Source of the DNA: Acinetobacter sp. WCHA45
Lineage (GTDB): Bacteria > Pseudomonadota > Gammaproteobacteria > Pseudomonadales > Moraxellaceae
Direction: 5' to 3'
DNA: 64,000 bases
Assembly (NCBI RefSeq): GCF_002165255.2
Contig: NZ_CP028561.1
Coordinates: forward strand, 2,480,001 to 2,544,000
Position numbers and translations under genes: made by a program. Below are positions 26,523 through 54,244 of this stretch, in pieces. Position 1 is the stretch's first letter; each line of letters opens with the position of its first letter. The notes under the pieces were generated by a model that had not been told where the DNA came from, did no database searches, and saw only the letters and a list, made by a program, of their open reading frames with translations.

Positions 26523-27524
26523 TTATTTCTCAATAATTCTCACCGTTGCAGTTCGCCCTGAAACAAAAGCTAATGGATTTTGAGGCTGTTCATCTAAAAT
26601 AATTTTTACAGGCACACGTTGCGCTAAACGTACCCAACTAAAAGTAGGGTTTACATTTGCCAATAGATTAGAACTACCAGAACGCTCACGATCTTCGATC
26701 CCTGTTGCAATACCTTGAACATGCCCACGAATGAATTGATGATCCCCCATCAACTGTACGGTTGCCGAATCACCGACATGAATACGATTCAATTTGGTTT
26801 CTTCAAAATAACCCACCACATACAGTTGATGACGATCAAGCAAGGCCGCAACCGCCTGCCCCACTTTCACATAATTACCGACACGCAAATCAAAGTTCGA
26901 CAAAGTACCATCCGCAGGTGCAACGACTGCTGAACGACTCATATTGAGCTGAGCTAAATGTAAATTGCTATTCGCCACGTCGATCAAAGCTTGTTGTTGT
27001 TGAATGGCGGCCTCAGCCTGTTCAATACTCGCTGCTAGCTGTTCTTTCTCAGCAATCGCCTGATCACGTGTAGCAAAAACCTGATCTTGCTCTTGCTTAG
27101 AGATTGCACCATCCATCAAACTCGCATAACGTGCTGCATTCTTCTCAGCCAATTTCATATTAGCTTCAGTCTTGACCAAATTTGCCTTTGAACCGACTAA
27201 GTTTGCATGCGCCTGAGCCAAACCAGCATTGGCTTTAGCTAAATCAGATTTAGCCTGTTCAACGTCAAGGGCTTGACGTTCTACATCAATCTTGAAAAGA
27301 ACTTGTCCTTTCTTTACCGTCTGATTGTCCTGTACCAGCACCTCAGTTACTAATCCATTAACATCCGAAGCCACTTGAACCACATCACCACGCACACGAC
27401 CATCACGTGTCCACGGTGCGGCATTGTAGTAATTCCATAAATGCACGACTGCATATATCGCAATCAAAACCGAAAGTACTAATACAATTGGACGTATGAC
27501 TTTTCGTACATCAAATGCATTCAT
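26523..27524 (-). CDS. HlyD/EmrA-like membrane fusion protein of an AaeA-type efflux system
   Basis: Periplasmic adaptor subunit of an efflux pump, anchored by one N-terminal helix (RPIVLVLSVLIAIYAVVHLW). After the anchor comes WTRDGRVRGDVVQVASDVNGLVTEV, typical of the EmrA/AaeA group, a lipoyl half-motif, a long Ala/Gln/Glu-rich coiled-coil hairpin (about 75-195), the second half-motif (VVAPADGTLSNFDLRVGNYV) and a beta-barrel domain. I take the ATG at 27524, six bases after AAAGGTG; two start codons lie a little upstream. It is the third gene of the FUSC-DUF1656-adaptor operon. Its upstream promoter is separated from it by the composite transposon, so expression is doubtful. Confidence 0.88.
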   Translation of the reverse strand: MNAFDVRKVIRPIVLVLSVLIAIYAVVHLWNYYNAAPWTRDGRVRGDVVQVASDVNGLVTEVLVQDNQTVKKGQVLFKIDVERQALDVEQAKSDLAKANAGLAQAHANLVGSKANLVKTEANMKLAEKNAARYASLMDGAISKQEQDQVFATRDQAIAEKEQLAASIEQAEAAIQQQQALIDVANSNLHLAQLNMSRSAVVAPADGTLSNFDLRVGNYVKVGQAVAALLDRHQLYVVGYFEETKLNRIHVGDSATVQLMGDHQFIRGHVQGIATGIEDRERSGSSNLLANVNPTFSWVRLAQRVPVKIILDEQPQNPLAFVSGRTATVRIIEK

Positions 27525-27577
27525 GTTCATCACCTTTACCACATATTTTTAAATCATTAAATTTCGGAGAGAGCTAC

Positions 27578-27793
27578 TTAAAGGCTTGTACCTTGTAAAT
27601 AAAGACATAACCAATGCATACACAGCAACAATCCCAAGTACAAACACAAGTTGAAAATATTCGGTAGTACAATCCAACCTCTCATAACTAAACGATCGAT
27701 CAGTGGACTCATCAGCTTAAAGAGCACGTAGGCGATAATGGCTTGCACCAAAAGAATTGGAATATAGATTCCATAAACGTTAATCTCACCCAT
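27578..27793 (-). CDS. DUF1656 small membrane protein (AaeX-like)
   Basis: 71-residue inner-membrane protein with two hydrophobic segments (IYIPILLVQAIIAYVLFKL and NLCLYLGLLLCMHWLCLYL). The opening MGEINVYGIYIP is characteristic of DUF1656/AaeX proteins, which sit between FUSC pumps and HlyD adaptors. The ATG at 27793 overlaps the end of the FUSC reading frame and has AGGTG seven bases upstream; an ATG three codons earlier is less suitable. Role in the pump is unknown. Confidence 0.85.
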   Translation of the reverse strand: MGEINVYGIYIPILLVQAIIAYVLFKLMSPLIDRLVMRGWIVLPNIFNLCLYLGLLLCMHWLCLYLQGTSL

Positions 27794-28207
27794 GCAATAC
27801 ACCTAAATCATATGTTTCTGAATCCATCTTTTGTGTTGAGACATGCCCGATGCTTTCACAAATATTATTCAGAGAAATCAACATTCTTTGAGCGAGCTGC
27901 TCATCTTCAATTTGCACTGCAATCCGCTGTAATAGATCAATCTGCTGTACAATTCGAATTGGAAAATGGTTCAGAGAAAGTTGTTTCTCTTGCATTTGAA
28001 AATATTCAGTCAGTTGCTGTTGCAGTACATTGACTTCATTTTTCAAACTGACCAATTGGGGGAGTTTTTGGCTGATTTCTTGCAATCGGACTAAGTCAAT
28101 AATTGAACTACTTTCAATCAAAGCATTCTGAATCGAAATCTTAACTTCAGGATTTTGAACCATTTTGGTATTCAATACTCCAACTCGGTCCAACATACTG
28201 CGTAGAT
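27786..28207 (-). pseudogene. FUSC/AaeB-like efflux gene, 3' fragment cut by the composite transposon
   Basis: Encodes the last 140 residues (HLRSMLDRVGVLNTK onward) of a FUSC-family inner-membrane transporter, all cytoplasmic helices. The rest of the gene lies at 41267-42938, on the other side of a 13-kb insertion. The codon phase at the 8-bp repeat (AAA ATT C) is identical in both parts, so removing the insertion and one repeat copy rebuilds a single frame of about 697 codons. An open frame begins at an ATG inside the IS end (28280) and reads into this fragment, so a short fusion peptide could be made, but it contains no membrane domain. Its end overlaps the DUF1656 start. Confidence 0.9.
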
Positions 28208-28215
28208 GAATTTTG
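28208..28215 (+). repeat. Left target-site duplication GAATTTTG
   Basis: Eight bases directly before the outer end of IS copy 1; repeated in the same orientation directly after IS copy 2 at 41267-41274. Eight to nine bases is the usual duplication size for IS1-family insertions. Confidence 0.9.
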
Positions 28216-29003
28216 GGTGGTGTATCAAAAAGTATGCTAAAAAAAAGCAGGTTGAATTTTGATAAAATAGAGAAATGCAAATAACTCTAGAAATCAAATG
28301 TCCAACCTGCCTCAGTGACAGTATAAAGAAAAATGGCATCAAAGTAGATGGGAAACAAAACTACCAATGCAAAGACTGCAAACGTCAGTTTATTGGTGAC
28401 CATGCTCTGAGCTATCTAGGATGTAATTCTGGCATTACTCGTAAAATATTACAGTTAATGGTCAGAGGCAGCGGTATACGAGATATCGCTGAAGTTGAGC
28501 GCATTAGTATCGGTAAAGTCTTACGGACTTTAACTGAATCGGCCTATCAAATTCAGCCTAAACAAAGTCATTATGAATCTCTCGAAGTAGATGAATTCTG
28601 GACTTTTGTTGGAAATAAAAATAATAAACAATGGCTTATTTACGCCTACCATCGAGAAACAGGTGAGATTGTTGCTTATGTTTGGGGTAAGAGAGATTTA
28701 GCTACAGTCCAAAGGTTGAAGACAAAGCTTAAACAATTAGGTATTCACTACACCCGAATTGCAAGTGATCATTGGGACAGTTTCATCACTGCTTTTAAAA
28801 ACTGCAAGCAAAGTATTGGTAAGTTGTTTACTGTAGGAATTGAAGGTAATAATTGCAAAATAAGGCATCGAATAAGGCGTGGTTTTAGAAGAAGTTGCAA
28901 TTTCTCCAAAAAGCTTGAAAACCATTTTAAAGCCTTCGACTTAACCTTCTTTTACATCAATAATGGCTTCATTTAATGTCAGCATACTTTTTAAAACACC
29001 ACC
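28216..29003 (+). mobile_element. IS1-family insertion sequence, copy 1
   Basis: 788 bp with imperfect terminal repeats: left GGTGGTGTATCAAAAAGTAT, right (reverse complement) GGTGGTGTTTTAAAAAGTAT. It encodes one uninterrupted transposase. The right end cuts into a GGDEF gene and the left end abuts the target duplication in the FUSC gene. I could not name the element from memory. Confidence 0.95.
28275..28976 (+). CDS. IS1-family transposase, copy 1
   Basis: 233-residue DDE transposase in a single frame, unlike E. coli IS1 where InsA and InsB are joined by frameshifting. The N-terminal zinc-finger CPTC...CKDC (about residues 9-36) and helix-turn-helix region (SGIRDIAEVERISIGKVLRTL) are InsA-like. 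Catalytic residues fall in LEVDEFWTFVG, IASDHWDSF and VGIEGNNCKIRHRIRRGFRRS, the InsB core. The protein is identical to the one at 40506-41207, so both copies appear intact and recently related. Confidence 0.95.
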   Translation: MQITLEIKCPTCLSDSIKKNGIKVDGKQNYQCKDCKRQFIGDHALSYLGCNSGITRKILQLMVRGSGIRDIAEVERISIGKVLRTLTESAYQIQPKQSHYESLEVDEFWTFVGNKNNKQWLIYAYHRETGEIVAYVWGKRDLATVQRLKTKLKQLGIHYTRIASDHWDSFITAFKNCKQSIGKLFTVGIEGNNCKIRHRIRRGFRRSCNFSKKLENHFKAFDLTFFYINNGFI

Positions 29004-29350
29004 AAAGTTTTAACGACAGCTATGGACATGCCGAAGGTGATCAGGCACTGAGCCTGGTAGCAGGTCTGTTTCAGCGCAACAGCAGGAACTATGACTTTTT
29101 CGCCCGTTATGGTGGTGAAGAGTTTGTGCTGATCTTGCCAGGCACAGACATCGTGTCGGCCAATAAAACACTGGAAAAATTAAGGCTGGTAGTGGCTAAC
29201 CATGAATGGCCATTACGACAATTAACGGTCAGCATCGGTTTGGCCAGCGCTGATTTATTTAACGACAAAAAGCAGTTGCTCGAAGCCGCCGATCAGATGT
29301 TATACAAAGCTAAAGCCCAAGGCCGCAATCAAACCAGTGTGTTCTGTTAA
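29004..29350 (+). pseudogene. GGDEF diguanylate cyclase, 3' fragment truncated by IS1
   Basis: C-terminal two-thirds of a GGDEF domain: KSFNDSYGHAEGDQAL, then the active-site ARYGGEEFVLILPG and LTVSIGLAS, ending QMLYKAKAQGRNQT. The normal upstream part (sensor region and the beginning of the cyclase fold) is missing because the IS1 right end replaces it at the conserved DxDxFKxxND motif. A chance ATG within the IS keeps the frame open but cannot make a complete cyclase. Codon use is more GC-rich than in the chromosomal neighbours, suggesting foreign origin. The 187 bases that follow hold no recognisable feature. Confidence 0.85.
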
Positions 29351-29537
29351 TTTGAGGGGGATCACCTAACAACTGGTAGATAAGCTGGTCTCATATGGGC
29401 AATAATTAGTCCGTTTAAATACATCGGTAAAATGCCACTTGCACAGCTTCTTTGTACACTGTGGGACTCTATTTAAAGTTGGCCGGCACATTGATTGCGT
29501 AGCGAAAATAGAGTGCTTTAGCCAGCACAATTTCAGA

Positions 29538-30200
29538 TTAGCCGATTCGGTAAGCTTTCTGCATTTGCGGAGACAACTTTTTTAACCAGTTTGAAAGACT
29601 GAAGCCTTTTCTGTCGGTACTATTCAATTTAGTAAAATACAGATGTTCATCCCAGCGAGGACCGAAATCTACTTCAGCAAGACTTACAAGCTGTTTGTTT
29701 CTGCGAAGACGATGCTTTTGATGGTAATCTTCGGCTGGCCAAAAATAACCATTTTGTTGTCCGGCTTCAATCACCTCGGGAGACTTATCCTTTCCAATCG
29801 CTTGGATCAGTTCTTCAGTGACTTGTTTTTGCTCCTGATCAAAGACAAAAAGTATCTGGCGATACTGACCCTGCTTTCTGACATGAACAAACCATGACTC
29901 AAAACCTCCAAGAAGTTCTCTATAGCTAATTTGGTCTTTATCGTAGATCACTCTGACGACTTCGGCGTGTCCCTTGATGTTGCGGTAACTCGGATCCAGA
30001 GTTGATGCTCCAGCGTAGCCAACACGTGTTTGCACTACTCCCGGCGTCCCTCCAAAATTTGAATCCGGTCCCCAAAAGCAGCCCGTGCCAAAAACCGTTT
30101 GACTAAGTTTTCCGGTTTTCAATGCTTCTTCGATAGCTTCAGGGGTCGCAAATTCATAGCTTTCAACATCGTCTTCTTTATTCATTTTTAGATCCGACAT
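29538..30200 (-). CDS. msrA: Peptide methionine sulfoxide reductase MsrA (long form)
   Basis: Reduces methionine-S-sulfoxide in proteins, using thioredoxin or glutaredoxin for recycling. 220 residues from the ATG at 30200 (MSDLKMNKED), preceded by AGGTG; a GTG three codons upstream is the alternative. The catalytic motif GTGCFWGPDSNFGG is near residue 40, followed by RVGYAGASTLDPSYRNIKGHAEVVRVIYD and DYHQKHRLRR. It has N- and C-terminal extensions compared with the second MsrA of this operon. It is the last gene of the minus-strand msrA-grx-msrB-(decayed grx)-msrA cluster. Presumed cytoplasmic; no signal peptide. Confidence 0.92.
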   Translation of the reverse strand: MSDLKMNKEDDVESYEFATPEAIEEALKTGKLSQTVFGTGCFWGPDSNFGGTPGVVQTRVGYAGASTLDPSYRNIKGHAEVVRVIYDKDQISYRELLGGFESWFVHVRKQGQYRQILFVFDQEQKQVTEELIQAIGKDKSPEVIEAGQQNGYFWPAEDYHQKHRLRRNKQLVSLAEVDFGPRWDEHLYFTKLNSTDRKGFSLSNWLKKLSPQMQKAYRIG

Positions 30201-30213
30201 ATTTTTCACCTAA

Positions 30214-30408
30214 CTTTTTAAGAATTGTAGCCACTCCCATTCGCAGATCAGCAGCAGCCGACGGTCGTCTTCATGAACATCCAAAAAACAAACTGGATCC
30301 CTTTTTCTGTCAAGTACGAATGGTAAATCTTGGTTTTATGGCAGTCTTTATGACCGAACAGCTTGATCAACACACAACGGCTTCTTTTTCCAAAAGGTTC
30401 ACTTTCAT
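30214..30408 (-). pseudogene. Frameshifted glutaredoxin-like gene
   Basis: Between msrB and the long msrA there is a good start (GAGGAG, then ATG at 30408) but the frame stops after 13 codons. Following shifted frames recovers a thioredoxin-fold-like peptide: VLIKLFGHKDCHKTKIYHSY, then LTEKGIQFVF, then LDVHEDDR, then AAADLRMGVATILKKLG, requiring at least three frame changes. The pattern (strand, single Cys, helix, strand, DVxxDD, helix) suggests a glutaredoxin-like protein with a monothiol site, and the place in the operon would suit it. The shared start signal and coherent fragments make random sequence unlikely. The family call is my inference. Confidence 0.55.
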
Positions 30409-30428
30409 AAAACTCCTCAATTTAAAAA

Positions 30429-30869
30429 TTATTCTACAAACTTCAATGACTCAGAGTTAATGCAGAATCGGACCCCTGATGGCTCAGGGCCATCTGGAAA
30501 AACGTGCCCCAGATGGGCTTCGCACACATTGCATAACACTTCGATTCTGCGCCCGTACGTCGTATCCAGTTCATATTGAATTACGTTGTCGGCGACAGGC
30601 TCAGAAAAACTCGGCCATCCCGTTCCCGAATCGAACTTTAGGTTCGAGTCAAAGAGTTCGGTGTCGCAGCCAACACAGGCGTATCTACCTGCTTCATAAA
30701 ATGAACAGAGTCCTCCCGTGTGCGGGCGTTCGGTGCCTTTCATTCGCATAACCCGAAATTGCGCGGGCGTCAGAATTTCTTTCCACTCTTCCTCGCTCCT
30801 TTCAACTTTTCTGGGAGGTGCTGGAGTGCCGTTATCGAGGTAGCTGTAAATGCTTTTCCAATTGAACAT
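30429..30869 (-). CDS. msrB: Peptide methionine sulfoxide reductase MsrB
   Basis: Reduces methionine-R-sulfoxide, complementary to MsrA. 146 residues. The four structural zinc cysteines are in CVGC and CNVC. The substrate motif FDSGTGWPSFSEP and the catalytic RFCINSESLKF ending are present. Start ATG at 30869 follows AAAGGATC. It lies 31 bases downstream of the glutaredoxin gene in the same operon. No signal peptide, so presumably cytoplasmic. Confidence 0.94.
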   Translation of the reverse strand: MFNWKSIYSYLDNGTPAPPRKVERSEEEWKEILTPAQFRVMRMKGTERPHTGGLCSFYEAGRYACVGCDTELFDSNLKFDSGTGWPSFSEPVADNVIQYELDTTYGRRIEVLCNVCEAHLGHVFPDGPEPSGVRFCINSESLKFVE

Positions 30870-30900
30870 ATATTTGATCCTTTATTTTAGGGCTTGCTCT

Positions 30901-31137
30901 TTAGCCATCAATCCACGAGAAGAAGTCTGTAGCACTGCCAATGAATTCTCCATCCACAAAAACTTGCGGAACAGTTTGAAGATTTGTTCTTTCCTTCAAC
31001 TCCAAGTAAGTCTTCGGATCGTCGTCTACGCGAATTTGTTTGAAATCAACCTTTTCAGAAGTTAGGTAATTCTTTACGCGTGCGCAAAATGGACAATGGT
31101 CTTTCGTATAGATGACAACATTCTTAAGTGTTTTCAT
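30901..31137 (-). CDS. Glutaredoxin
   Basis: Short dithiol glutaredoxin, 78 residues from the ATG at 31137 (MKTLKNVVIYTKDHC), which has AGAGGAAATT upstream; another ATG lies five codons earlier. The active site is CPFC, and the glutathione-binding TVPQVFVDGEFIGSATD stretch is intact. Lying between msrA and msrB, it is a likely electron donor for recycling the oxidised reductases. It appears foreign like the rest of the operon. Confidence 0.92.
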   Translation of the reverse strand: MKTLKNVVIYTKDHCPFCARVKNYLTSEKVDFKQIRVDDDPKTYLELKERTNLQTVPQVFVDGEFIGSATDFFSWIDG

Positions 31138-31164
31138 AATTTCCTCTTTCATTTGGTTTATGGT

Positions 31165-31653
31165 TTAGTCTCTTTCAAAATGGCAAGAGTATCCGTTGGG
31201 ATTCCTTTGCAAATAGTTTTGATGATATGCCTCAGCGTCGTAGAATTCTTTTTCCAAGGCGACGGTCGTAACTACTTCATTCTCGAAGCGACCGATCTCA
31301 TTGACCTCCTCAATCACGTTTTCGATAATCGCTTTCTGGGCATCGTCACGATAGAACGCAGCAGAGCGATACGAAGATCCAACATCATTCCCTTGGCGAT
31401 TCTTCGTAGTTGGATCATGGATCTTGAAAAAGTAATGTAGAATCTCTTCGAGAGATATTTCGTCTGGGTCGTATTCCACGCGAACAGCTTCGGCGTGACC
31501 CGTTTTCCCTGTTTTAATATCGGCGTAGGTAGGATCATCAAAATCTCCGCCAGAGTAGCCCACCTTTGTTGACGTCACGCCGTCCAGATTCCTAAGGAGG
31601 TCTTCAAGACCCCAAAAACACCCTCCGGCAACGATCACATAATTTAGTTTCAT
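31165..31653 (-). CDS. msrA: Peptide methionine sulfoxide reductase MsrA (short form)
   Basis: Second MsrA, 162 residues, first gene of the operon. Catalytic AGGCFWGLEDLLRN is right at the N-terminus, then KVGYSGGDFDDPTY, TGHAEAVRVEYDPDEIS, GNDVGSSYRSAAFY and DAEAYHQNYL. It has an AAGGAGG binding site. It is transcribed divergently from an AraC-type regulator gene 122 bases away, which strongly suggests control by that regulator. A partial, frameshifted duplicate of its first about 33 codons lies at 34569-34667. Confidence 0.94.
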   Translation of the reverse strand: MKLNYVIVAGGCFWGLEDLLRNLDGVTSTKVGYSGGDFDDPTYADIKTGKTGHAEAVRVEYDPDEISLEEILHYFFKIHDPTTKNRQGNDVGSSYRSAAFYRDDAQKAIIENVIEEVNEIGRFENEVVTTVALEKEFYDAEAYHQNYLQRNPNGYSCHFERD

Positions 31654-31775
31654 AAAGCCTCCTTGGTTTTTATCTATTTACTGATTAAACTGACTTTACA
31701 GCATGTATAATAGATATAACATGCCCAGTAGTTCGTATAATGTGACTTATTAGACAGTTTGCGTAGGAGCTAAGT
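31654..31775. promoter_or_regulatory. Divergent promoter/operator between msrA and the AraC-type regulator
   Basis: 122 bases contain both promoters. A 35-base core at 31726-31760 is perfectly repeated, inverted, at 34462-34496 within a second degraded copy of the same length. The core holds a TATAAT at about 31736-31741 that suits the regulator promoter. The retained core is the best candidate regulator binding site. Confidence 0.6.
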
Positions 31776-32711
31776 ATGGATGTTCTCAGTGAGATTTTAG
31801 ATAAGGTAGAGCTTACTAGTAGCTACTGGTATAGAACATCATTTGCAGGAGACTGGGGCATCAGTCTCCCGCAGGAAGAGAATCTAGCGAGATTTCACAT
31901 CGTGACCCATGGCGAGTTTTGGTACGAGGTGCCAAAACTTAAACTTAAGGCTTTGGCGGAGCAAGGCGATATTTTGATTTTATTCAAAGGGATGGAGCAC
32001 ACCATGACCAGTGCACCAAAAATCAAGGCCGAGCCCGCGGTCGAATTTAGATCCAAGGCCAACCTCACTGAAACTCAAGTTCTGGAATATGGTGATCAGA
32101 GCAAGCTCAAAGCAAACGTCGTTTGCGGACATTTTTGTTTTGATGGCGGACCCGATCATCCATTCTTAAATTCGCTGCCAAACGTCGTGCATATCAAGAG
32201 TACTGAGAACTCCCACTCGCCTTGGCTTACCATGCTTTTAAGTATTATAGAGCAGGAAGCAAAATCAGGGCTTCCTGGAAGCAACACGCTAGTCAGGAAG
32301 CTGACCGAAATTATCTTCGTGCAAGCGTTAAGAATTCACATGTACAAATCCAACAAAAATGTAGGATTTTTCAAATTGATCGAAAATCCGCAACTCAGCA
32401 AATCCTTGGAAGCTATCCATCATAGTCTCGATAAAAAATGGGGTCTTGACGATCTCGCTGAGATTGCTGGAATGTCGCGTACGAACTACAGCGTTAAGTT
32501 TAAGAAACTGTCTGGCATGACACCTCTTGATTATTTAACCTATTGTCGGCTTGAAAAAGCGAAGCAGCTGCTTAAAGAAACCGGTAAATCTGTTCCTGAA
32601 GTGAGTGAAGCCATTGGGTATCCGGCACATGAACACTTTCAAAAATTATTTAAGAAAAAAATTGGCGTAACTCCTAGTGCTTATAGAAAGGAAAATTCTA
32701 AAATGGCGTAA
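31776..32711 (+). CDS. AraC-family transcriptional regulator with cupin_6 domain (RclR-like)
   Basis: 311-residue regulator. The N-terminal about 190 residues form an AraC-type cupin_6 sensor domain (WGISLPQEENLARFHIVTHG, a second motif NVVCGHFCFDGG with Cys117 and Cys121, then NSLPNVVHI). The C-terminal region from about 210 has the two helix-turn-helices (WGLDDLAEIAGMSRTNYSVKFKK and VPEVSEAIGYPAHEHFQKLFKK). This architecture is shared with RclR, the redox-sensing activator of reactive-chlorine defence in E. coli, although RclR's reported sensing cysteines lie elsewhere. Start has TAGGAGCTAAGT upstream. Divergent from the msr operon, which it probably activates. Confidence 0.85.
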   Translation: MDVLSEILDKVELTSSYWYRTSFAGDWGISLPQEENLARFHIVTHGEFWYEVPKLKLKALAEQGDILILFKGMEHTMTSAPKIKAEPAVEFRSKANLTETQVLEYGDQSKLKANVVCGHFCFDGGPDHPFLNSLPNVVHIKSTENSHSPWLTMLLSIIEQEAKSGLPGSNTLVRKLTEIIFVQALRIHMYKSNKNVGFFKLIENPQLSKSLEAIHHSLDKKWGLDDLAEIAGMSRTNYSVKFKKLSGMTPLDYLTYCRLEKAKQLLKETGKSVPEVSEAIGYPAHEHFQKLFKKKIGVTPSAYRKENSKMA

Positions 32712-32755
32712 AAATGATAATCTAAGACACAACTTCGACTTTCATCGCTGAGAGT

Positions 32756-34030
32756 TTATAAATCGTCTCCCACCACCGGTATCCATAAGCAGATAAACCG
32801 AGTTCTTGAAGCATTCCTGCTTTCAATGTCGTCGACGTGATCACGATTCGAGTTCAGATAACTACTCTGTTGATGAATACTCTCAGTTAATTGCTGCTCA
32901 CCAGATTCCAACACAGCACCAGCGAGCTCGGCACATACGGAAGCAAAACCATAAAGCGCTTGATTATCACGGGTAAAATGCAGTGGCATCGTCTGGCCTT
33001 TTACATGAAGGGACCATTCCAAAACTCTATGTTTACCTTTTATTCGGCTACTGACAAATACCGTTTTACTGGTGCCGCTGGCGCCAATGACTAAAAAGCT
33101 GGTGATAGCCAGCCCTATCAGCGACCATAACTCAGGTCTCCCACTGAGTAACAGTGGGTTAGGCAAATGACTCCTCAAAACGAGTTCAGTACCAAGCGTC
33201 AACGCTGTTTTATAGACTGCTTGTTCTAATAATGGCGTTGCATCAACCAGTGACGCTTCAGCCTCACAGCTATAAGGTTCAGCGACAGCTGTAGCTCTCA
33301 ACCATTCTGTTTCATGGGCAATTGCCAACAAATTTGACCAAATTCGAACCAGTGCCGCGATATGAATGGAGTTTTCATGAGCTAAGACAGTTTGATTAAG
33401 CTGTAGCTCAAGCTCCTGATGCCAATATTGGTACTGGCTAGTCAACAGTACAAATAACTCGGATTGAAGTAACTTATTAGTCGCTACCGGTTTTATCCTA
33501 TTGGATATCTCATTGAAAAGTTGGATAAATTTTAAGTCTGCTTGTTGCTCACGCTTGAGCTGCTCTTGTTGTTGCTGCAGCAATTGCAAATCATATTCAA
33601 TAGCCTGCTTAAAGAGTGTGAGTAAGGAACAGTGTTGTGATGCCCGGTCTGCGCTTGCCCGGTCCAACATACACAAAGTACCGAAAGTTTCTCCGCTAGG
33701 CCAAAGCAAAGGCAGCCCGTAGTAATAACTAAAGCCTGCGGCAAATGTCGGGTTATTGTTCTCGTATCGGGTACCGATTGCATTTTCAACTAGCAATGGC
33801 TGGTGACTGGCAATGACTTGGGAACAATAACTGTTTAGTGCCAATGGAATAGGTTCATCGCAATAAAAAGCTGGTTTCGACACACTGCCAACTGCCTGAA
33901 CACAAATTTCGTTTTTATCTAATCGATTAATCAGCACGCAAGGCACTTCCGCGACTTGAGCCATCATGTTTACAATGCCCTGCCAGCGCTCTAACAGCAG
34001 TGCGATTTCTATGCTCAAATCTATTGCCAC
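32756..34030 (-). CDS. GAF-domain signalling protein, kinase-like C-terminus
   Basis: 424 residues from the GTG at 34030, which has GAGGG five bases upstream; a TTG four codons earlier is the alternative. An N-terminal GAF domain (about 15-140) has FAAGFSYYYGLPLLWPSGETFGTLCMLDR. A Gln-rich coiled coil (about 148-165) follows, then a region resembling the dimerisation and ATPase parts of histidine kinases (HENSIHIAALVRIWSNLLAI...RPELWSLIGLAITSFLVIG) but without clear H-box or G-box residues. It is probably a degenerate sensor. Convergent with the AraC gene and GC-richer than the host. The link to the msr genes is unproven. Confidence 0.6.
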   Translation of the reverse strand: MAIDLSIEIALLLERWQGIVNMMAQVAEVPCVLINRLDKNEICVQAVGSVSKPAFYCDEPIPLALNSYCSQVIASHQPLLVENAIGTRYENNNPTFAAGFSYYYGLPLLWPSGETFGTLCMLDRASADRASQHCSLLTLFKQAIEYDLQLLQQQQEQLKREQQADLKFIQLFNEISNRIKPVATNKLLQSELFVLLTSQYQYWHQELELQLNQTVLAHENSIHIAALVRIWSNLLAIAHETEWLRATAVAEPYSCEAEASLVDATPLLEQAVYKTALTLGTELVLRSHLPNPLLLSGRPELWSLIGLAITSFLVIGASGTSKTVFVSSRIKGKHRVLEWSLHVKGQTMPLHFTRDNQALYGFASVCAELAGAVLESGEQQLTESIHQQSSYLNSNRDHVDDIESRNASRTRFICLWIPVVGDDL

Positions 34031-34042
34031 TTGTTCCCTCAA

Positions 34043-34439
34043 TATTTAAATAGCCCCTTTTACTTTATTCAATCCTGTTGATCTCAAAGTATCAAGCAGG
34101 AAACGAAGTAATTGGTGTCAATCAGAACATCAGAAGCCTTGGTGCGTTAAGCAGTGCACATAGGCGCGAAGTAAAGTGCTCAAGTCTGATTGTGGCAAGA
34201 AATTGTTACTTTGTCAGGGGATAGTCAACAAAGTACTACCGTGCGAATTGCTGGGCTGATGTTTAAGATAAATCTGCCACCAAAAGTTGAATCTGAGTAA
34301 CGCAATTGAACATTTAAAAATGTAAAGCATTGAAATTTATATGGACATAGACAATCTAATTTGCCCTATATTTGCAGACATTCATTTTTTTCGTGAACCC
34401 TTAATTTCACAACTCTTTAAATCTGATATCCAAAGTCTG
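34043..34439. other. Gene-free stretch upstream of the GAF gene
   Basis: About 400 bases with no open frame, RNA or repeat that I can support. It must contain the promoter of the GAF-domain gene on the minus strand. It ends where the inverted remnant of the msrA/regulator promoter begins. Confidence 0.3.
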
Positions 34440-34667
34440 CATCCATACATACCCCCTACGTAAACTGTCTAATAAGTCACATTATACGAACTACTGAACA
34501 TGTTATACCTGTTTTACACGCTGTAAAGTCAGGTACATCAGTAAATAGATAAAAACCAACGAGGCTTTATGAAACATAAATTATGTGATCGTTGCTGGAG
34601 GGTGTTTTTGGAGTCTCGAAGACCTCCTTAGAAATCAGGACGGCGTAACGTCAACGAAGATGTGTAG
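34440..34667. repeat. Inverted, decayed duplicate of the msrA/regulator promoter and gene starts
   Basis: Inverted copy of the region 31555-31782. The start of the regulator (ATGGATG, minus strand, from 34446), the 122-base spacer (34447-34568) and the first about 33 codons of msrA (ATG at 34569, plus strand) can all be aligned. The msrA piece has an extra A after codon 2 (AAACATAAA against AAACTAAA), which shifts the frame. Substitutions are scattered except in a perfect 35-base core (34462-34496). It is probably a relic of another msrA/regulator locus, brought in or duplicated long ago. Confidence 0.8.
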
Positions 34668-34804
34668 TGGCACTGAAATGGCGACTGCGCAAGACGTGAA
34701 GATGAGCTGTCTGATAGCAACGGATTATCAAGCAGAACCTTCTTAAATACAATTTATTCCACGCCAATACAGCGTGCTGTCTTTCAAATCACTAGGAGAA
34801 ATTT

Positions 34805-35359
34805 ATGTCACGTTTGAACACCCCTACCACAATCGACGCCGCGCCTACTGCTACCCATACCTCACTCAAGGCTGTGGAAAAACAACTGGGCCGCGTTCCT
34901 AACATGTTCCGCGTCGTTGCCAACAGCCCTGCTGCGCTGACTGGCTACCTGCAATTGAGCGCAGCATCAGCACAGGGCGGCTTGGGTACAGCGACTCTTG
35001 AGCGTATTGCCCTAGCCGTCGCTGAGATCAACGGCTGCGATTATTGCCTTGCTGCCCATTCCTTCCTAGGCCGTAAGGTGGCCAAGCTTGATGATGCTGA
35101 ACTCACTGCCAACCGCAGCGGTGCATCAAATGACCCTAAGGCCGACGCAGCCGTGCGTTTTGCTGCCGCCGTAGTCCGCCAGCGCGGGCAAGTCAGCAAT
35201 GACCAGGTCCAAGCGGTGCTGAACGCTGGCTACAGTGATGCACATGTAGTGGATATTCTGTTGGCTGTTGCCCTGAACACTTTCACTAACTACGTTAACG
35301 AAGTGACACAGACCGAGGTCGACTTCCCGGCCGTTCAACCACTAGGCATTGATGTCTAA
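34805..35359 (+). CDS. Carboxymuconolactone decarboxylase (AhpD-like) family protein
   Basis: 184 residues with the alkylhydroperoxidase-type motif INGCDYCLAAHSFLGRK (about residues 76-92), whose CxxC plus His form the peroxidatic or disulfide-exchange centre in AhpD-like proteins. LKAVEKQLGRVPNMFRVVANSP near the N-terminus is typical of the uncharacterised peroxidase-related branch. A consensus binding site (AGGAG) precedes the ATG. It is 137 bases upstream of the DUF417 gene on the same strand, and the pair probably form an operon. Likely role: detoxification of organic peroxides or chlorinated oxidants. GC-rich relative to the chromosome. Confidence 0.85.
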   Translation: MSRLNTPTTIDAAPTATHTSLKAVEKQLGRVPNMFRVVANSPAALTGYLQLSAASAQGGLGTATLERIALAVAEINGCDYCLAAHSFLGRKVAKLDDAELTANRSGASNDPKADAAVRFAAAVVRQRGQVSNDQVQAVLNAGYSDAHVVDILLAVALNTFTNYVNEVTQTEVDFPAVQPLGIDV

Positions 35360-35496
35360 TCCATTGGTGCTCAACTACAGCAATTACCTAAGTTAGGTTC
35401 GACTCGAGTAAACATATAGTTTTTCTCAAGAGTCATATCATTTTAGTGGGCTACATAGAGTGAGTCCACATGGCTAAAAATAATTGGAGATATAAG

Positions 35497-36012
35497 ATGA
35501 CTATTCCCGAAATTGAAAATGGTGTCCAGACTACCAATACCCTTAGTAATAATCTCGGTGCAAAAATCACTAAGTTTGGTATAGGTGGCATCTACGTTGC
35601 CATGACGATAATATATTTGTGGTTTGGTGGCATGAAATTCACTAGCTACGAAGCAAACGGTATACATGGTTTTGTTAGTAATAGCCCTCTGCTTTCGTGG
35701 ATGTATAGCTTCCTCAGCATTCAAGGATTCTCAAATTTTCTGGGTGTGCTTGAAATTTCAGTTGGCCTGTTAATCGCTGCACGAGTTTTCTCCCCTAAGC
35801 TCGCAATCTTGGGCGGTGTACTTTCAACCGGACTCTTTTTTACGACATTGTCGTTCATGCTGACTACACCCGGTGTTTTTGAGGCATCTCTTGGGTTTCC
35901 TGCGATCTCTGTGGTTCCTGGCCAGTTTTTGCTAAAAGATTTAGGCTTGTTTGTCGTGTCTATATTTATCGTAGGTACATCACTTACAGCACTGGAGCAC
36001 AAAACCAAATAA
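35497..36012 (+). CDS. DUF417 inner-membrane protein (RclC/YkgB-like)
   Basis: 171 residues with four hydrophobic segments: IGGIYVAMTIIYLWFGGMKF, the SPLLSWMYS and FSNFLGVLEISVGLLIAA region, LAILGGVLSTGLFFTTLSFM and LGLFVVSIFIVGTSLTAL. The YLWFGGMKFTSYEANGI and SPLLSW motifs are characteristic of DUF417, the family of E. coli RclC (YkgB), encoded in the RclR reactive-chlorine regulon. I choose the ATG at 35497, with GGAG eight bases upstream; an in-frame ATG nine codons earlier is possible. It strengthens the oxidative-defence reading of this island. Function of the family is unknown. Confidence 0.85.
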   Translation: MTIPEIENGVQTTNTLSNNLGAKITKFGIGGIYVAMTIIYLWFGGMKFTSYEANGIHGFVSNSPLLSWMYSFLSIQGFSNFLGVLEISVGLLIAARVFSPKLAILGGVLSTGLFFTTLSFMLTTPGVFEASLGFPAISVVPGQFLLKDLGLFVVSIFIVGTSLTALEHKTK

Positions 36013-36040
36013 GCCGAACCCGAAACAACTATTAAGTTAG

Positions 36041-36075
36041 AGGGTTCCTAAACACATTAGAAACCCTTTATTTTT
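36041..36075 (+). terminator. Rho-independent terminator after the DUF417 gene
   Basis: AGGGTTCCTA/TAGAAACCCT pairs with one mismatch over a 7-nt loop and is followed by TTATTTTT, 28 bases past the stop. Confidence 0.7.
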
Positions 36076-36722
36076 ATCATTTAAAACACCTTTTATAAGT
36101 GCTTCAAGTACGTGCCTTACTAAATAATATCACTTCATTGGTCTTAAAAAGGCAAAATACAGTATTCAAAAACTGTAGTGGTCAACTATTTTTGGCCACA
36201 TCGATATAGTCTGAAAAACGGTGCGTTCTTGAAACCCGAAATGAATAATGCACTCATTTTTTACTTTATGGCAATGCGTTGATATCTCGAAATTTTCGAG
36301 AGTCTCAGTTCCGTGATTGTCAGAAATGTCCGCTTTCAGTGAAAAGCGCCGATTTTGTCGAATCTCAGTGAATTTCAGCTTTTGGCACAAAGCCGAGATC
36401 CGACGAAGTGGTACTTTCCGTGAAAGTTGTGGTGCGATTAATTTGCAACACGTGGTAAGGAGCGGTTGCAATGTGGTGGTAAATTAAGTGCAATTAATCA
36501 AGAAGGTGAATCAATGAGTGAACAACTGAACTGTCAAAGCCGCATGGATGCGGCGACAACTCTGTACTTGCCGCAAATAACTATCCCCGTCCTGCTAAAC
36601 CAATGACGTAACTCCTATCTCTCCCGACTTGTTGGAACAAGTCGCACTCACAAGGTGCAATTAAACACTGAACAAAAATTCATGGATGAATGGTTACCGC
36701 CGAAGGACTCGGCGCAAATAAA

Positions 36723-36757
36723 AAACGTACATACCATTATACACAGTATGTACGTTT
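36723..36757. repeat. 12-bp perfect inverted repeat
   Basis: AAACGTACATAC and GTATGTACGTTT flank an 11-nt spacer. It could be an operator, a recombination site or a bidirectional terminator; there is no T-run beyond the arm itself. Confidence 0.5.
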
Positions 36758-36872
36758 GAAATTAAAGCCGCTGACGTTATATGTAAAGCCCTGTCACTCA
36801 CTCACACGCGAATAGACACTGTTTTTACTATATACTCCAACAAGGGGGATTTTTATTTTATCTTAGTGTTAA

Positions 36873-38045
<1,173 letters not shown>

Positions 38046-38057
38046 TCACGTCGCTCC

Positions 38058-40211
38058 TTAACCGTAGAATTTTTTGTTGTTAGCAGCCATGTCACGCAAC
38101 ATTTGTGGCGCTTCATAAGCCTTACCTAAGTGTGCGTATTTGTCGCAAAGTGCAACGTATTCAGCAACACCAGTTTGGTCGATGTAACGGCATGGACCAC
38201 CACGGAATGGAGGGAAACCTACACCCATAATCATCGCCATGTCTGCTTCAGAAGCAGTCGCTACGATGTTGTCTTCTAGGCAACGAACAGTTTCGTTACA
38301 GAAAGCAAGCATCATACGGTCAATGATTTCTTGAGCATCAAACTCGCGTTTTTCTGCAGTTGCCACAGTAGCAACAAGCTCATACGCAGTTGGATCAACC
38401 ACTTTGGCTTTTTTGCCTTTACGGTCAAGTTCGTATTTGTAGAAACCAACGTCGTTCTTTTGACCCAAACGTTTGTTTTCGTACATGATTTCGATTGAAC
38501 CTTTGAAGTCTGGCTTCATACGGTCAGGGAAACCTTCAGCCATCACTTCTGCACCGTGAACGCCCGTGTCGATACCAACAACGTCGATTAGGTAAGCAGG
38601 ACCCATAGGCCAGCCGAATTTTTCCATCACTTTGTCGACTTGTTGGAAGTCAGCACCGTCTTTCAATAGAAGGTCAAATGCACCGAAGTAAGGGAACAAG
38701 ACGCGGTTTACAAGGAAACCTGGGCAGTCGTTCACAACGATTGGTGTTTTACCCATTTTCTGAGCAAGAACAACCGTGGTCGCAATCGCTTCAGCCGAAG
38801 TCTTCTCACCACGGATCACTTCTACCAATGGCATCATGTGTACTGGGTTAAAGAAGTGCATACCCACGAAGTTTTCAGGACGTTGTAGGTTTTCAGCCAA
38901 ACGTGTGATTGAAATTGTTGAAGTATTTGAAGCAATGATCGTGTTGTCACGAACATTCTTCTCAGTTTCAGCAAGTACAATGCCTTTTACTTTTGGATTT
39001 TCAGTTACTGCTTCAATCACGATGTCCACTTCTTTAAACTCGTCATAGCTTAAAGTAGGGCGGATGCGCGCAAGAGTTTCACCCATTTGAGCAGGTTTCA
39101 TCTTCTTACGTTCAACTTGTTTGGTGAGTAAGCCATTGGCTTCTTTCATACCCAAAGCAAGTTGCGGATTACCAATGTCTTTCATGATGATTGGTGTGCC
39201 TTTGCTTGCCGCTTGGTAAGCAATACCACCACCCATGATACCCGCGCCCAATACAGCCGCTTGGTTTACAGGGTGTGCACCTTTTTCATATTTCTTCGAA
39301 GTTTTCTTCACCACTTGGTCATTGATGAATAGACCAATTAACGCATTTGCTTGTGGTGTAATGGCTGCTTTTGCAAAACCAGCCGCTTCAGCTTGAAGTG
39401 CTTCATTACGTGGAAGGCTTGCACCTGCTTGTAATGAGTCAAGAAGAAGTTTAGGCGCAGGGTATTGAGCAGGATTTGCTTTTGCAAGGACCGCACCTTT
39501 CGCCGAGTTGAACGCCATCATTTGTTCGATTGGGTTCAATTTAACAGGGTCAAGTTTTTCCTGACGTTTTGCTTTCCAGTCTACACGGCCAGCAAGGGCT
39601 TGTTTAACCAAGTCAATCGCAGCGTCTTGTAGTTTGTCTGCAGCAACAACCGCATCAACCGCACCGTCTTTCAGTGCCGCAGCAGGTTTTTTAGGATTAG
39701 CCATGGCCATCCATTCAACTGCATTGTCGATACCAATTAGACGGCTTAAACGAACCGTACCACCGAAACCAGGGAAGATGCCCAGTTTGATTTCAGGAAG
39801 ACCGACTTGAGCCGCTTCTGACATCACACGATAGTCACACACGAGGCACATTTCAAAGCCGCCGCCCAATGCCATACCATTGATCGCTGCAACTTTAGGA
39901 ATCTCTAAATCTTCAAACGCGTTGAAAATGTCGTGAACAGGCAATGCCCAATCCACAATCGCTTGTTCGCCTTGAGCGAAGTTTGCACCAAATTCAGTAA
40001 TATCTGCGCCAACGATAAATGTAGATTTAGCCGAAGTAACGATTAAGCCTTTGATGTCACCGTTTGCTTTAACAGCGTCAATTGCAGCTTTGAAATCTTC
40101 AATCGTTGCACGGTTAAATTTGTTGACCGACTCACCTTGTAAGTCAAAGCGGAATTCTGCAATTCCGTCCGAAAGCATTTGGACGGTAATGGCATTGCCA
40201 GCGTGGATCAT
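38058..40211 (-). CDS. fadB: Fatty acid oxidation complex alpha subunit FadB, transposon copy
   Basis: Multifunctional enoyl-CoA hydratase / 3-hydroxyacyl-CoA dehydrogenase, 717 residues. The N-terminal crotonase domain has [16 protein letters not shown] and the catalytic Glu in [15 protein letters not shown] (about 139-153). The dehydrogenase Rossmann motif is [19 protein letters not shown] (about 317-335), with the [13 protein letters not shown] segment following. Intact start with GGAGATCAGGC. Residues 1-256 differ from the other copy at many positions; residues 257-717 are identical. About 85 bases upstream are shared with the other copy, including a TATAGT element, so its promoter may have been carried along. 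Confidence 0.96.
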
Positions 40212-40478
40212 GCCTGATCTCCTTTATTTTGGAGGACTTCTAAGTTGATGTTGTGAAGCGAGTACGTCATTCCTACGTACATCTATGCTCCGCCAATCTT
40301 ACGATAACTATATCGAAAAAGAACATAACAAGTTGTATCAAGCCGTGACGCAAGGGTCATCTATTTTTATTCAATTATTTCGTGTGCTTGCGTGATGTAT
40401 TTTTGAATGATGTGGTCTAAATAGAGTGAAGTTTTTGTTTCGTTTAAGATTTTTTATGGATGAGTGATTAAAAAATGA

Positions 40479-41266
40479 GGTGGTGTTTTAAAAAGTATGC
40501 TGACATTAAATGAAGCCATTATTGATGTAAAAGAAGGTTAAGTCGAAGGCTTTAAAATGGTTTTCAAGCTTTTTGGAGAAATTGCAACTTCTTCTAAAAC
40601 CACGCCTTATTCGATGCCTTATTTTGCAATTATTACCTTCAATTCCTACAGTAAACAACTTACCAATACTTTGCTTGCAGTTTTTAAAAGCAGTGATGAA
40701 ACTGTCCCAATGATCACTTGCAATTCGGGTGTAGTGAATACCTAATTGTTTAAGCTTTGTCTTCAACCTTTGGACTGTAGCTAAATCTCTCTTACCCCAA
40801 ACATAAGCAACAATCTCACCTGTTTCTCGATGGTAGGCGTAAATAAGCCATTGTTTATTATTTTTATTTCCAACAAAAGTCCAGAATTCATCTACTTCGA
40901 GAGATTCATAATGACTTTGTTTAGGCTGAATTTGATAGGCCGATTCAGTTAAAGTCCGTAAGACTTTACCGATACTAATGCGCTCAACTTCAGCGATATC
41001 TCGTATACCGCTGCCTCTGACCATTAACTGTAATATTTTACGAGTAATGCCAGAATTACATCCTAGATAGCTCAGAGCATGGTCACCAATAAACTGACGT
41101 TTGCAGTCTTTGCATTGGTAGTTTTGTTTCCCATCTACTTTGATGCCATTTTTCTTTATACTGTCACTGAGGCAGGTTGGACATTTGATTTCTAGAGTTA
41201 TTTGCATTTCTCTATTTTATCAAAATTCAACCTGCTTTTTTTTAGCATACTTTTTGATACACCACC
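40479..41266 (-). mobile_element. IS1-family insertion sequence, copy 2
   Basis: 788 bp, opposite orientation to copy 1 but the same length, ends and transposase. Its outer end is followed directly by the GAATTTTG duplication and the FUSC gene. The inner end lies in AT-rich DNA upstream of fadB. Confidence 0.95.
40506..41207 (-). CDS. IS1-family transposase, copy 2
   Basis: 233 residues, identical in sequence to the transposase of copy 1 and complete from zinc finger to the terminal KKLENHFKAFDLTFFY. Both end copies therefore encode a potentially active enzyme, so the whole 13-kb unit may still be mobile. Confidence 0.95.
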   Translation of the reverse strand: MQITLEIKCPTCLSDSIKKNGIKVDGKQNYQCKDCKRQFIGDHALSYLGCNSGITRKILQLMVRGSGIRDIAEVERISIGKVLRTLTESAYQIQPKQSHYESLEVDEFWTFVGNKNNKQWLIYAYHRETGEIVAYVWGKRDLATVQRLKTKLKQLGIHYTRIASDHWDSFITAFKNCKQSIGKLFTVGIEGNNCKIRHRIRRGFRRSCNFSKKLENHFKAFDLTFFYINNGFI

Positions 41267-41274
41267 GAATTTTG
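41267..41274 (+). repeat. Right target-site duplication GAATTTTG
   Basis: Matches 28208-28215 exactly in the same orientation, marking one insertion event of the complete composite element into the FUSC gene. Confidence 0.9.
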
Positions 41275-42938
41275 AACTCACTACCATAAGATAGATTTAA
41301 TGCCTGACGCATCGCCTGATAATGTAAAGTTAAAATTCGCGTTGCACTGGTATCAGGTGAAACAGCTCGAACTAAATCAATCACAATGAGTGAAACCAAT
41401 ACGCCCAGAACCATTGCAAATGAACTATCTAAGTAAGAAACAGCATCCATGCTGTATTTATTGTGCAGATTCAATCCCATCATGGTGTTAATCCCAAGTA
41501 CCATTCCTACAGGCATTAACATTTGATTGGCCATCATGGTGACAGCCACTAAAAACACAGGAAATAGCACCAAAGCCAATTGCCAAAAATGGGTCACATG
41601 CGGAAAAATACCAAATGCATATAAGAATACTAAGCCTGCGGATACAATACTGCCCCAAATAAAAATCCGTAGCACAGGTACTGGGTTATCCAATGCTGTT
41701 AAGATACACGCCGTGATAGCCCCCATTTGCGCCATCATAAAACCCGCCTTCCAACCAGACAGAATCCAAGCTGCAGTGACAATAAAAGTAATCAGTACAG
41801 CACTAATTCCACCTCGTATCGCAATACCATGATCACGATGTAAACTTGGATATTTCGTCGTAATGGCTGTAATTTCTATTGGAATTTCTTTATTACCTTG
41901 CTGAATCTGTTGCCAGAGTAGCTTTACTGCCAAGATATTGGCCATAAAATGACGAATGTCCATCTTTAATGCAGCCAATACAACTTTCTGTTCAGACGTT
42001 GCTTTAGAAATCAGCTCAGCGAAATCCTCTTCAAATCCAATCGGCAAAGTCTGTAAATCAGCAGGTACTAAACTTTTCTCTTGTTTTAAAAATGTCACAG
42101 TATGCTGACGAAGCATATCCAAATGCGAAACAAGATTAACCAAGTGCAAATGTTCGAGTTGTTTCACACGTTGAGACAATGCAACCAAATTCGCAACCAC
42201 CAATGACACTTGATGTAGCATTTCCTGTAAAGGCTTGGTCATGCCTTTCAACTCACCTTTCTCATAAGCCAAATGTACAGCTAAAGCATGAATATCAGAG
42301 GCATCACGAGTAATCACAGATAAAACTTGCGTGTAATTTTCAGGTGTTTCTTGAACTGCAATCAATTTTTCAAAAGTTGCTTCTAGATCGTTTAAGGTTT
42401 TATTGACACGTTGCTTGATCATTGCGCCAACATGAACTGGAAAAAAAGTTGCCGAAACAACGGCAGAAGAAACCACCCCAACTGAGATTTCAAGTACACG
42501 TGCAACAGCGATATCAAAAATATTGTAGGTATCGATATAGGTAATTGCATTATAAACAATCATGGCAGTTGAATATCCTGCCAACATAAATACGTAGCTA
42601 CGCGGCGTGCGGTCTAGTAATGACACATATAAAGCAAAGCCCACCCAGAGAGATAAAATAACCGTAAATAGCCACGGCGTATTAATAAAATGTGGGGTCA
42701 ATAACAGTGCTATGACTGCCCCTGCAACAGTTCCAATCAAACGATATACACATTTCGAAGACACCATTCCTGAATAAGGATTGGCAATAATCATGACCGT
42801 TCCAATCGACCACATCGGATTAATCAAATCTAATTCAAAAGAAATAAACAGTGCCAGCATGCCTGTTACAAAGGTTTTACAAGCAAAAATAAGATCAAGT
42901 CGGCTTGGTCTGAAAGCTAACAGCTGTTTAAGTAACAT
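41267..42938 (-). pseudogene. FUSC/AaeB-like efflux pump gene, 5' part cut by the composite transposon
   Basis: Encodes the first 557 residues of a FUSC-family inner-membrane pump, related to AaeB (efflux of aromatic carboxylic acids) and to fusaric-acid resistance proteins. Two membrane blocks are visible: about 18-165 (MLALFISFELDLINPMWSIG, then further helices) and about 375-530 (AVLITFIVTAAWILSGWKAGF onward), separated by a helical cytoplasmic domain. The open frame continues 15 residues into the IS before stopping. The missing 140 residues are at 27786-28207. It was the first gene of the pump-DUF1656-adaptor operon. The truncated protein retains both membrane domains, so residual function cannot be excluded. 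Confidence 0.93.
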
Positions 42939-48998: not shown

Positions 48999-49142
48999 TG
49001 ATATCGGCACTTAAAAATTAATCGCCAAATTTTAACACCATCCCTCACAATTTCTAGCCGCTTTTACTCAAACTCAGACGTAGATAGTGAGTTAATTTTT
49101 TTTAATCCTATTTTTCAAAAACTTAATAACTTTTTTTAAAAA

Positions 49143-53009: not shown

Positions 53010-53021
53010 GGAGCGACGTGA

Positions 53022-54194
<1,173 letters not shown>

Positions 54195-54213
54195 TCGACA
54201 CTGAGATAAAGAG

Positions 54214-54244
54214 AAAATCCCCGCTATATGCGGGGATTTTTATC
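54214..54244. terminator. Rho-independent terminator after fadA
   Basis: AAAATCCCCGC/GCGGGGATTTT with a 5-nt loop and T-runs on both strands; it serves fadBA and the convergent gene at 54262. Confidence 0.9.

What the first reader, a model, noticed from the sequence alone, without database searches (positions are those of the whole stretch)
28208..41274. A 13-kb composite IS1 transposon split an efflux-pump gene, with target duplication and reading frame still readable
Seen directly: two 788-bp IS1-family copies in opposite orientation with identical transposases, GAATTTTG on both outer sides, unrelated inner flanks, and a FUSC gene whose two halves (557 and 140 residues) rejoin in the same codon phase (AAA ATT C) when the element and one repeat are removed. 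Known: IS1-family insertions duplicate 8-9 bp. Inference: one recent transposition of the full unit, which also uncouples the DUF1656 and HlyD-type genes from their promoter.
Basis: partly seen in the sequence, partly recalled or inferred. Interest (0 to 1): 0.85.

Follow-up and report, generated by a model that had tools for sequence, protein, structure and literature searches.

The report
Jumping plasmid gene block in pump gene
A 13-kb block of plasmid genes, carried by two copies of a jumping DNA element, landed inside a pump gene on an Acinetobacter chromosome, and the fatty-acid genes it brought appear to have swapped sequence with the cell's own copies, so such blocks may pass gene versions between species.

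Summary
Two identical 788-bp IS1-family copies (28216-29003 +, 40479-41266 -) bound a 13,051-bp unit with GAATTTTG on both outer sides. The FUSC pump gene is uninterrupted in the 132 other genomes where it was found, and four close relatives hold the empty site with one GAATTTTG. The unit is an established mobile element: it lies on 15 Acinetobacter plasmids at four plasmid sites, each with its own 8-bp duplication. The window copy is a trimmed form. Its left cargo end is shared with one plasmid, A. ursingii pRIVM_C010559_2; its right end is private. Across 17 copies seven different cargo losses all start exactly at an inner IS end, the signature of IS adjacent deletion. The copies are identical over 1,859 bp but 88.8% and 82.9% identical on either side. 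Part of that tract is resident sequence now in the transposon; the rest is transposon sequence now in resident fadB. This looks like two-way gene conversion, unless the assembly homogenised the copies. The kind of element is known; the exchange with a core gene is the interesting part.

The parts
28208..28215 (+). left copy of the 8-bp target duplication GAATTTTG
   Evidence: single copy in empty sites of four close relatives
28216..29003 (+). left IS1-family element, transposase ORF 28275-28976
   Evidence: NCBIfam transpos_IS1 223.9 bits, cut-off 100
29004..29350 (+). 3' end of a diguanylate cyclase gene, cut at the IS; 1,983 bp missing relative to the long plasmid form
   Evidence: GGDEF Pfam; among 17 copies the junction is shared only with pRIVM_C010559_2
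29538..30209 (-). MsrA-like methionine sulfoxide reductase
   Evidence: Pfam PMSR; TIGR00401 82.3 bits, below its cut-off of 108.1
30429..30869 (-). MsrB
   Evidence: Pfam SelR, TIGR00357 above cut-off
30901..31152 (-). glutaredoxin
   Evidence: Pfam
31165..31653 (-). MsrA
   Evidence: Pfam, TIGR00401 above cut-off
31776..32711 (+). AraC-type regulator, RclR-like
   Evidence: Cupin_6 + HTH_18; RclR model 121.3 bits, below its cut-off of 400
32756..34042 (-). protein of unknown family (no Pfam match)
34805..35359 (+). carboxymuconolactone decarboxylase / peroxidase-related protein
35470..36012 (+). DUF417 membrane protein, RclC-like
   Evidence: DUF417; RclC model 89.2 bits, below its cut-off of 275
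36367..36838 (.). non-coding segment about 99% identical to segments of enterobacterial plasmids and one E. coli chromosome; most matches shown end 6-7 bp before fadBA homology starts
36873..38045 (-). element fadA
38058..40211 (-). element fadB
37585..39443 (.). homogenised tract, 100% identical to resident 51624-53482; 37602-38052 is resident type, 38053-39443 is element type
40478..40479 (.). right inner junction, private to this copy among 17: 365 bp next to the right IS missing relative to the long form
40479..41266 (-). right IS1-family element, transposase ORF 40506-41207
   Evidence: Pfam DDE_Tnp_IS1
41267..41274 (+). right copy of the target duplication GAATTTTG
41268..42938 (-). 5' part (557 codons) of the interrupted FUSC-family pump gene
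   Evidence: FUSC Pfam 461 bits on ORF 41223-42938
27786..28208 (-). 3' part (140 codons + stop) of the interrupted pump gene; no Pfam match on its own
   Evidence: flank DNA 96-98% identical to the uninterrupted genes of four relatives
26523..27802 (-). downstream pump genes DUF1656 (27578-27802) and HlyD-type (26523-27542)
50697..54243 (+). resident fadBA; 51624-53014 carries element-type sequence

Best explanation
Shown from sequence: a plasmid-type IS1-family composite transposon inserted as one unit into a chromosomal FUSC pump gene and duplicated 8 bp. Its left cargo end lacks 1,983 bp starting exactly at the inner IS end, a form also found on one plasmid and so probably older than the jump; its right cargo end lacks 365 bp in the same way, lost before or after the jump. 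Inferred from pattern: these losses are IS adjacent deletions, in which one IS attacks a nearby site in cis and removes what lies between while keeping its ends, so the unit stays mobile as it shrinks. Inferred: in this lineage the element's fadBA and the resident fadBA recombined without crossover, giving a 1,859-bp identical tract with resident sequence in the element (37602-38052) and element sequence in the resident gene (51624-53014). One event with mismatch repair in both directions, or two successive events, would do.
For: Unit insertion: and 75 (collinear with G143, whose flank matches overlap by 8 bp). Mobility: 15 plasmid copies at four sites with duplications CGAACAAC, AAATCTTT, CTATTTTT and CAAAATTT; the duplication is perfect in 12 of 15 plasmid copies and in the window, 13 of 17 copies examined. 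Trimming: left cargo ends at five positions and right ends at four across the 17 copies, seven losses in all, each flush with an inner IS end. Conversion: of 287 informative sites 55 are resident type, all in one run 37602-38052, and the other 232 are element type. In 38053-39443 the resident copy has 0 of 1,391 differences from the element and from pAS74-1, but at least 36 from each of 74 other chromosomal fadBA loci, a few fetched twice. Longest identical run 1,860 columns against at most 231 in 5,000 shuffles. No inversion between the two copies.
Against: Only one genome of this species was available, so the resident mosaic might predate the element in other strains, and no reads were seen, so homogenisation by assembly or polishing is not excluded. 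The donor plasmid was not found: no second copy of the msr part in the assembly. A second chromosome with the element (G104) shows no long identical tract and no target duplication. One plasmid copy (L091) lacks a matching duplication, and L093 and L096 lost the left flank. pRIVM_C010559_2 shares the left end but differs from the window in the msr region.
Confidence: 0.85

Rival explanations
1. Two independent IS1 insertions, or an IS-mediated inversion or duplication of local chromosomal DNA, rather than transposition of a unit.
For: The cargo includes core-type genes (fadBA) that also lie 10 kb away.
Against: Outer flanks form one 8-bp repeat and close relatives hold one copy of it in an uninterrupted gene; the same unit is on plasmids; its fadBA is plasmid-type outside the tract; the msr part has no other full copy in the genome.
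Confidence: 0.02
2. The 1,859-bp identity between the two fadBA copies is an assembly or polishing artefact.
For: Two inverted 3.5-kb near-repeats lie 10 kb apart; no read data were available.
Against: I would expect a collapse to keep one copy's haplotype or to mix site by site; here two clean blocks of opposite origin have sharp borders. The repeats are resolved inside a 2.88-Mb contig.
Confidence: 0.12
3. Cargo ends differ between copies because IS1 copies were captured independently at different places, or because plasmids recombined, not because of deletions from one ancestral unit.
For: Each variant end is flush with an IS end; recombined patches in the cargo exist.
Against: Seven copies with both outer flanks share one plasmid insertion site and duplication but show three left ends and two right ends, most simply changes inside one inserted unit.
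Confidence: 0.1
4. Timing variant, compatible with the main explanation: the conversion took place while the element was on a plasmid in the same cell, before it jumped.
For: The element is mostly plasmid-borne; several plasmid copies vary more in fadB than in the msr part.
Against: None of the 14 plasmid copies that retain the stretch carries the resident-type tract (3-7 of 55 sites by pairwise alignment).
Confidence: 0.35

Closest known systems
IS1 composite transposons such as Tn9 (recalled, not looked up)
   Same: Two IS1-family copies bound unrelated cargo and move as a unit with a short target duplication.
   Different: Different IS (single-ORF transposase, about 94% identical to elements annotated ISPa14); cargo is stress and fatty-acid genes, not drug resistance.
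TnSha1/TnSha2 of staphylococci (PMC4923244, abstract and passages seen)
   Same: An IS spreads an extra, foreign copy of a metabolic gene, making a heterologous duplication.
   Different: IS1272 and fabI; the passages seen do not report sequence exchange with the resident copy.
Adjacent deletions by insertion sequences (PMC9330008 and PMC11708052, passages seen)
   Same: Losses begin precisely at an element's terminus and extend a variable distance.
   Different: Here they trim cargo inside a composite transposon, and trimmed forms are found across species and insertion sites.
Megaplasmid pALWED1.1 and relatives (PMC8490738 and PMC5067307, passages seen)
   Same: The unit sits at one fixed site in pALWED1.1 and eight other of the fetched plasmids.
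   Different: The passages seen do not describe the unit; PMC8490738 does report msrA and msrB as integron cassettes on the pR4WN plasmids, which also carry this unit.

Membership tests
IS1 family | IS1-type DDE transposase | tested here: met
   NF033558 223.9 bits, cut-off 100; PF03400
IS1 family | terminal inverted repeats | tested here: met
   GGTGGTGTATCAAAAAGTATGCT / GGTGGTGTTTTAAAAAGTATGCT
IS1 family | target duplication of about 8-9 bp | tested here: met
   8 bp at five unit sites. Solo copies in this genome: 7 bp for the third 100% copy, 8 bp for a 94% copy on contig C5, none visible for three 91-94% copies (L005 truncated, L006, L007)
Composite transposon | two IS copies bound cargo and the unit is found at more than one site with target duplications at its outer ends | tested here: met
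   five sites, five different duplications
Composite transposon | transposition observed | not testable with these tools
   needs an experiment
IS adjacent deletion | loss starts exactly at an IS end and the IS stays intact | tested here: met
   seven distinct ends; in 4 of 17 copies (L093-L096) the left IS is itself broken or cut, its inner end intact; G104 has a further insertion behind its left end
Gene conversion | identical tract with sharp borders, flanking markers unchanged, no rearrangement | tested here: met
Gene conversion | confirmed in reads or sister strains | not testable with these tools
   one genome per species, no reads
RclR/RclC reactive-chlorine locus | curated NCBIfam cut-offs | tested here: not met
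   RclR 121.3 of 400, RclC 89.2 of 275 bits: related, not members
AaeB efflux pump | NCBIfam PRK10631 cut-off | tested here: not met
   111.3 of 870 bits on the 5' part alone; FUSC Pfam met

The most novel reading that the evidence does not exclude
Composite transposons that carry divergent copies of core operons act as allele shuttles: once in a cell, cargo and resident gene recombine both ways, so foreign alleles enter the core gene and stay even if the transposon is lost, while the travelling copy picks up pieces of each host's allele.
Probability: 0.35. Interest if true: 0.65.

Novelty: new member of a known kind. Interest (0 to 1): 0.45.

Why it matters
It gives one place where four steps can be read from sequence: trimming of a transposon's cargo at its own IS ends, the jump from plasmid to chromosome, the gene it broke, and exchange between cargo and a core gene. 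If the exchange is general, interspecies mosaic alleles in core genes need not come from transformation or long-fragment recombination; a small mobile unit is enough, and strain typing from core genes could be misled.

Tried and rejected
Local duplication or inversion: rejected. Conversion in the second chromosome that carries the unit (G104): no long identical tract, longest run 182 bp. Assigning the fadB variation of other plasmid copies to particular host chromosomes: no clear donor among 74 loci (best 27 of 48 sites for pAhaemAN59c). Outward promoter from the left IS: one promoter-like site in 28150-29050, not directed outward, against a mean of 3.1 in shuffles. Structured RNA in 28000-41500: no Rfam match at gathering scores. 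Phage carriage: two phage records matched, over fadBA at 86.5%. E. coli genomes: no place covers 80% of the query. Prior description of this unit: not found, which cover open-licence papers only. Searches bearing on conversion between transposon cargo and core genes were seen as listings and abstracts; of their papers only PMC9330008 was opened, for adjacent deletions.

In one search many genomes match through fadBA alone, so its tally of 174 of 175 says nothing about the unit; near-complete matches were seen only in G000 and G104 among the rows shown, and that list was cut. One search compared 15 element copies (14 plasmids and G104) and 74 chromosomal loci; pALWED1.1 was left out because it lacks most of fadBA.

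Full report
What is there. The window is bases 2,480,001-2,544,000 of contig C6 of a 3.09-Mb genome in six contigs. Two inverted, identical 788-bp IS1-family copies lie at 28216-29003 and 40479-41266. GAATTTTG abuts both outer ends. The surrounding gene is a FUSC-family pump gene on the minus strand, with DUF1656 and HlyD-type genes downstream.

The insertion is real and recent. A search with the 5' part of the pump protein found it in 133 of 175 Acinetobacter genomes at E <= 1e-100; every listed match outside this genome sits in a stop-to-stop frame of 690-762 aa, against 575 aa here. Of the 30 loci fetched from that search, 29 are from other genomes; in all 29 the two flanks, searched separately, meet with exactly 8 bp of overlap. 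The 8-mer there is GAATTTTG in 7 of 29, including the four closest (G129, G143, G057, G152; 96-99% identity), and a one- or two-base variant in the rest. The longer comparison with G143 shows the same 8-bp overlap and otherwise collinear order, with a more divergent stretch at about 47,900-50,200.

The unit is a travelling plasmid element. Megablast against 72,556 plasmid records found 385 records with some match, 14 where one place covers at least 80% of the 13.3-kb query, and a fifteenth at 75%, the permafrost plasmid pALWED1.1; these 15 are all Acinetobacter. I fetched all 15 and one more chromosome, G104. Outer duplications are CGAACAAC at the megaplasmid site (both sides in seven records; L093 and L096 have lost the left flank), AAATCTTT (two records), CTATTTTT (one record, read across the record origin), CAAAATTT (two records; a third, L091, is a flipped derivative without a match), none in G104, and GAATTTTG here. 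That is five separate unit insertions with their duplications. The third 100% IS copy of this genome is a solo insertion with a 7-bp repeat. No second full copy of the msr part was found in this assembly, so the donor replicon is absent.

The cargo is trimmed from the inside. On the coordinates of pAS74-1 (L020; left IS ends at 4788, right IS starts at 18611) the left cargo begins at 4789 (seven copies), 5246 (two), 5292 (five), 6095 (G104, which has a further insertion behind it) or 6772 (pRIVM_C010559_2 and the window). The right cargo ends at 18610 (twelve copies), 18245 (window only), 18088 (three) or 15201 (pALWED1.1). Taking the longest form as ancestral, these are losses of 457, 503, 1,306 and 1,983 bp on the left and 365, 522 and 3,409 bp on the right, each flush with an inner IS end. 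Left ends 4789, 5292 and 6772 and right ends 18610 and 15201 occur at the same plasmid insertion site, so they most simply arose in place. Adjacent deletions are described as beginning precisely at an element's terminus (PMC9330008, passage). The left end shared with pRIVM_C010559_2 makes that plasmid lineage the likeliest source among those seen, although that copy has a divergent msr patch at about 30,500-32,500.

What the cargo is. It holds two MsrA-type proteins and one MsrB protein, glutaredoxin, a Cupin_6/AraC regulator, a CMD-family protein, a DUF417 protein, a protein of unknown family, and fadA and fadB. The regulator and DUF417 protein score best with RclR and RclC but far below the curated cut-offs, so a reactive-chlorine stress role is a guess by resemblance. 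The segment 36367-36838 also occurs at about 99% identity in enterobacterial plasmids and in one E. coli chromosome. Most full-length matches shown end at 36837 or 36838, 6-7 bp before fadBA homology begins at 36845; two (H48, H64) run on to 36861 and 36845. I infer, weakly, that an older mobile module landed beside fadBA in some Acinetobacter and that the IS1 pair later picked up both.

The exchange with the core gene. The resident fadBA lies at 50697-54243, inverted relative to the cargo copy. The two copies are 88.8% identical over 36845-37584 (657 of 740) and 82.9% over 39444-40300 (708 of 854), but identical over all 1,859 bp of 37585-39443, which is resident 51624-53482. Of 287 sites where the plasmid consensus and the resident differ, the cargo has the resident base at 55, all in one run 37602-38052, and the plasmid base at the other 232. 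At those 55 sites the 14 plasmid copies that retain the stretch and G104 show the resident base at 3-7 by pairwise alignment. In 38053-39443 it is the resident that matches the cargo: of 368 sites where three relatives agree and differ from the element consensus, the resident has the element base at 134 of 134 inside this stretch and at 17 of 234 outside. There the resident is identical to the cargo and to pAS74-1 (0 of 1,391), 2 off two other plasmids, 21-53 off the remaining element copies, and at least 36 off each of the 74 other chromosomal loci compared, a few of which are the same place fetched twice. At protein level the 26 FadB differences between the copies all lie in residues 1-236. 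The longest identical run is 1,860 alignment columns against a maximum of 231 in 5,000 shuffles. In the same columns the cargo or the resident against relatives gave at most 258 in the five pairs run, while the resident against pAS74-1 gave 1,391, against pRIVM_C010559_2 719, and against three more distant element copies 149-314. Gene order between the copies is unchanged from G143, so no crossover inversion is visible. G104 shows no such tract.

Limits. No reads and no second strain of this species were available, so assembly homogenisation (rival, 0.12) and the order of jump, right trim and conversion remain open. Loss of pump function and altered expression of downstream genes are inferred, not shown. 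Papers were seen only as search listings, abstracts or passages.

Noticed in passing
31561-31782 and 34440-34662: An inverted repeat of about 222 bp, 90% identical: the 5' end of msrA with its upstream region recurs in opposite orientation as a truncated msrA remnant, which plasmid records annotate as a short reductase gene.
   Followed up: partly
36367-36838: A non-coding segment shared at about 99% with an IncC and other enterobacterial plasmids and with an E. coli chromosome beside pykF. Most matches shown stop at the same right border, two run further, so it may be the end of another mobile unit.
   Followed up: partly
L019 (pRIVM_C010559_2), window-equivalent 30,500-32,500: The msr region of this copy differs by about 6-7% from the window copy, a recombined patch in the cargo.
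   Followed up: no
L091, A. johnsonii XY27 plas1: The unit is flipped between the same kinds of neighbours (dmeF, Kup) as in two other A. johnsonii plasmids, and its outer flanks no longer match.
   Followed up: partly
36873-40211 in plasmid copies: Some element copies vary far more in fadB than in the msr part (L021: up to about 20 differences per 500 bp in fadB against 0-1 before 37,500), suggesting recombination whose donors I could not identify.
   Followed up: partly
G000 contig C5, 45871-46664 and 170980-171773 (L007, L006): Two 91% identical IS1-family copies with the same 12-base flanks, each followed by a partial copy, suggest a duplicated stretch on contig C5.
   Followed up: no
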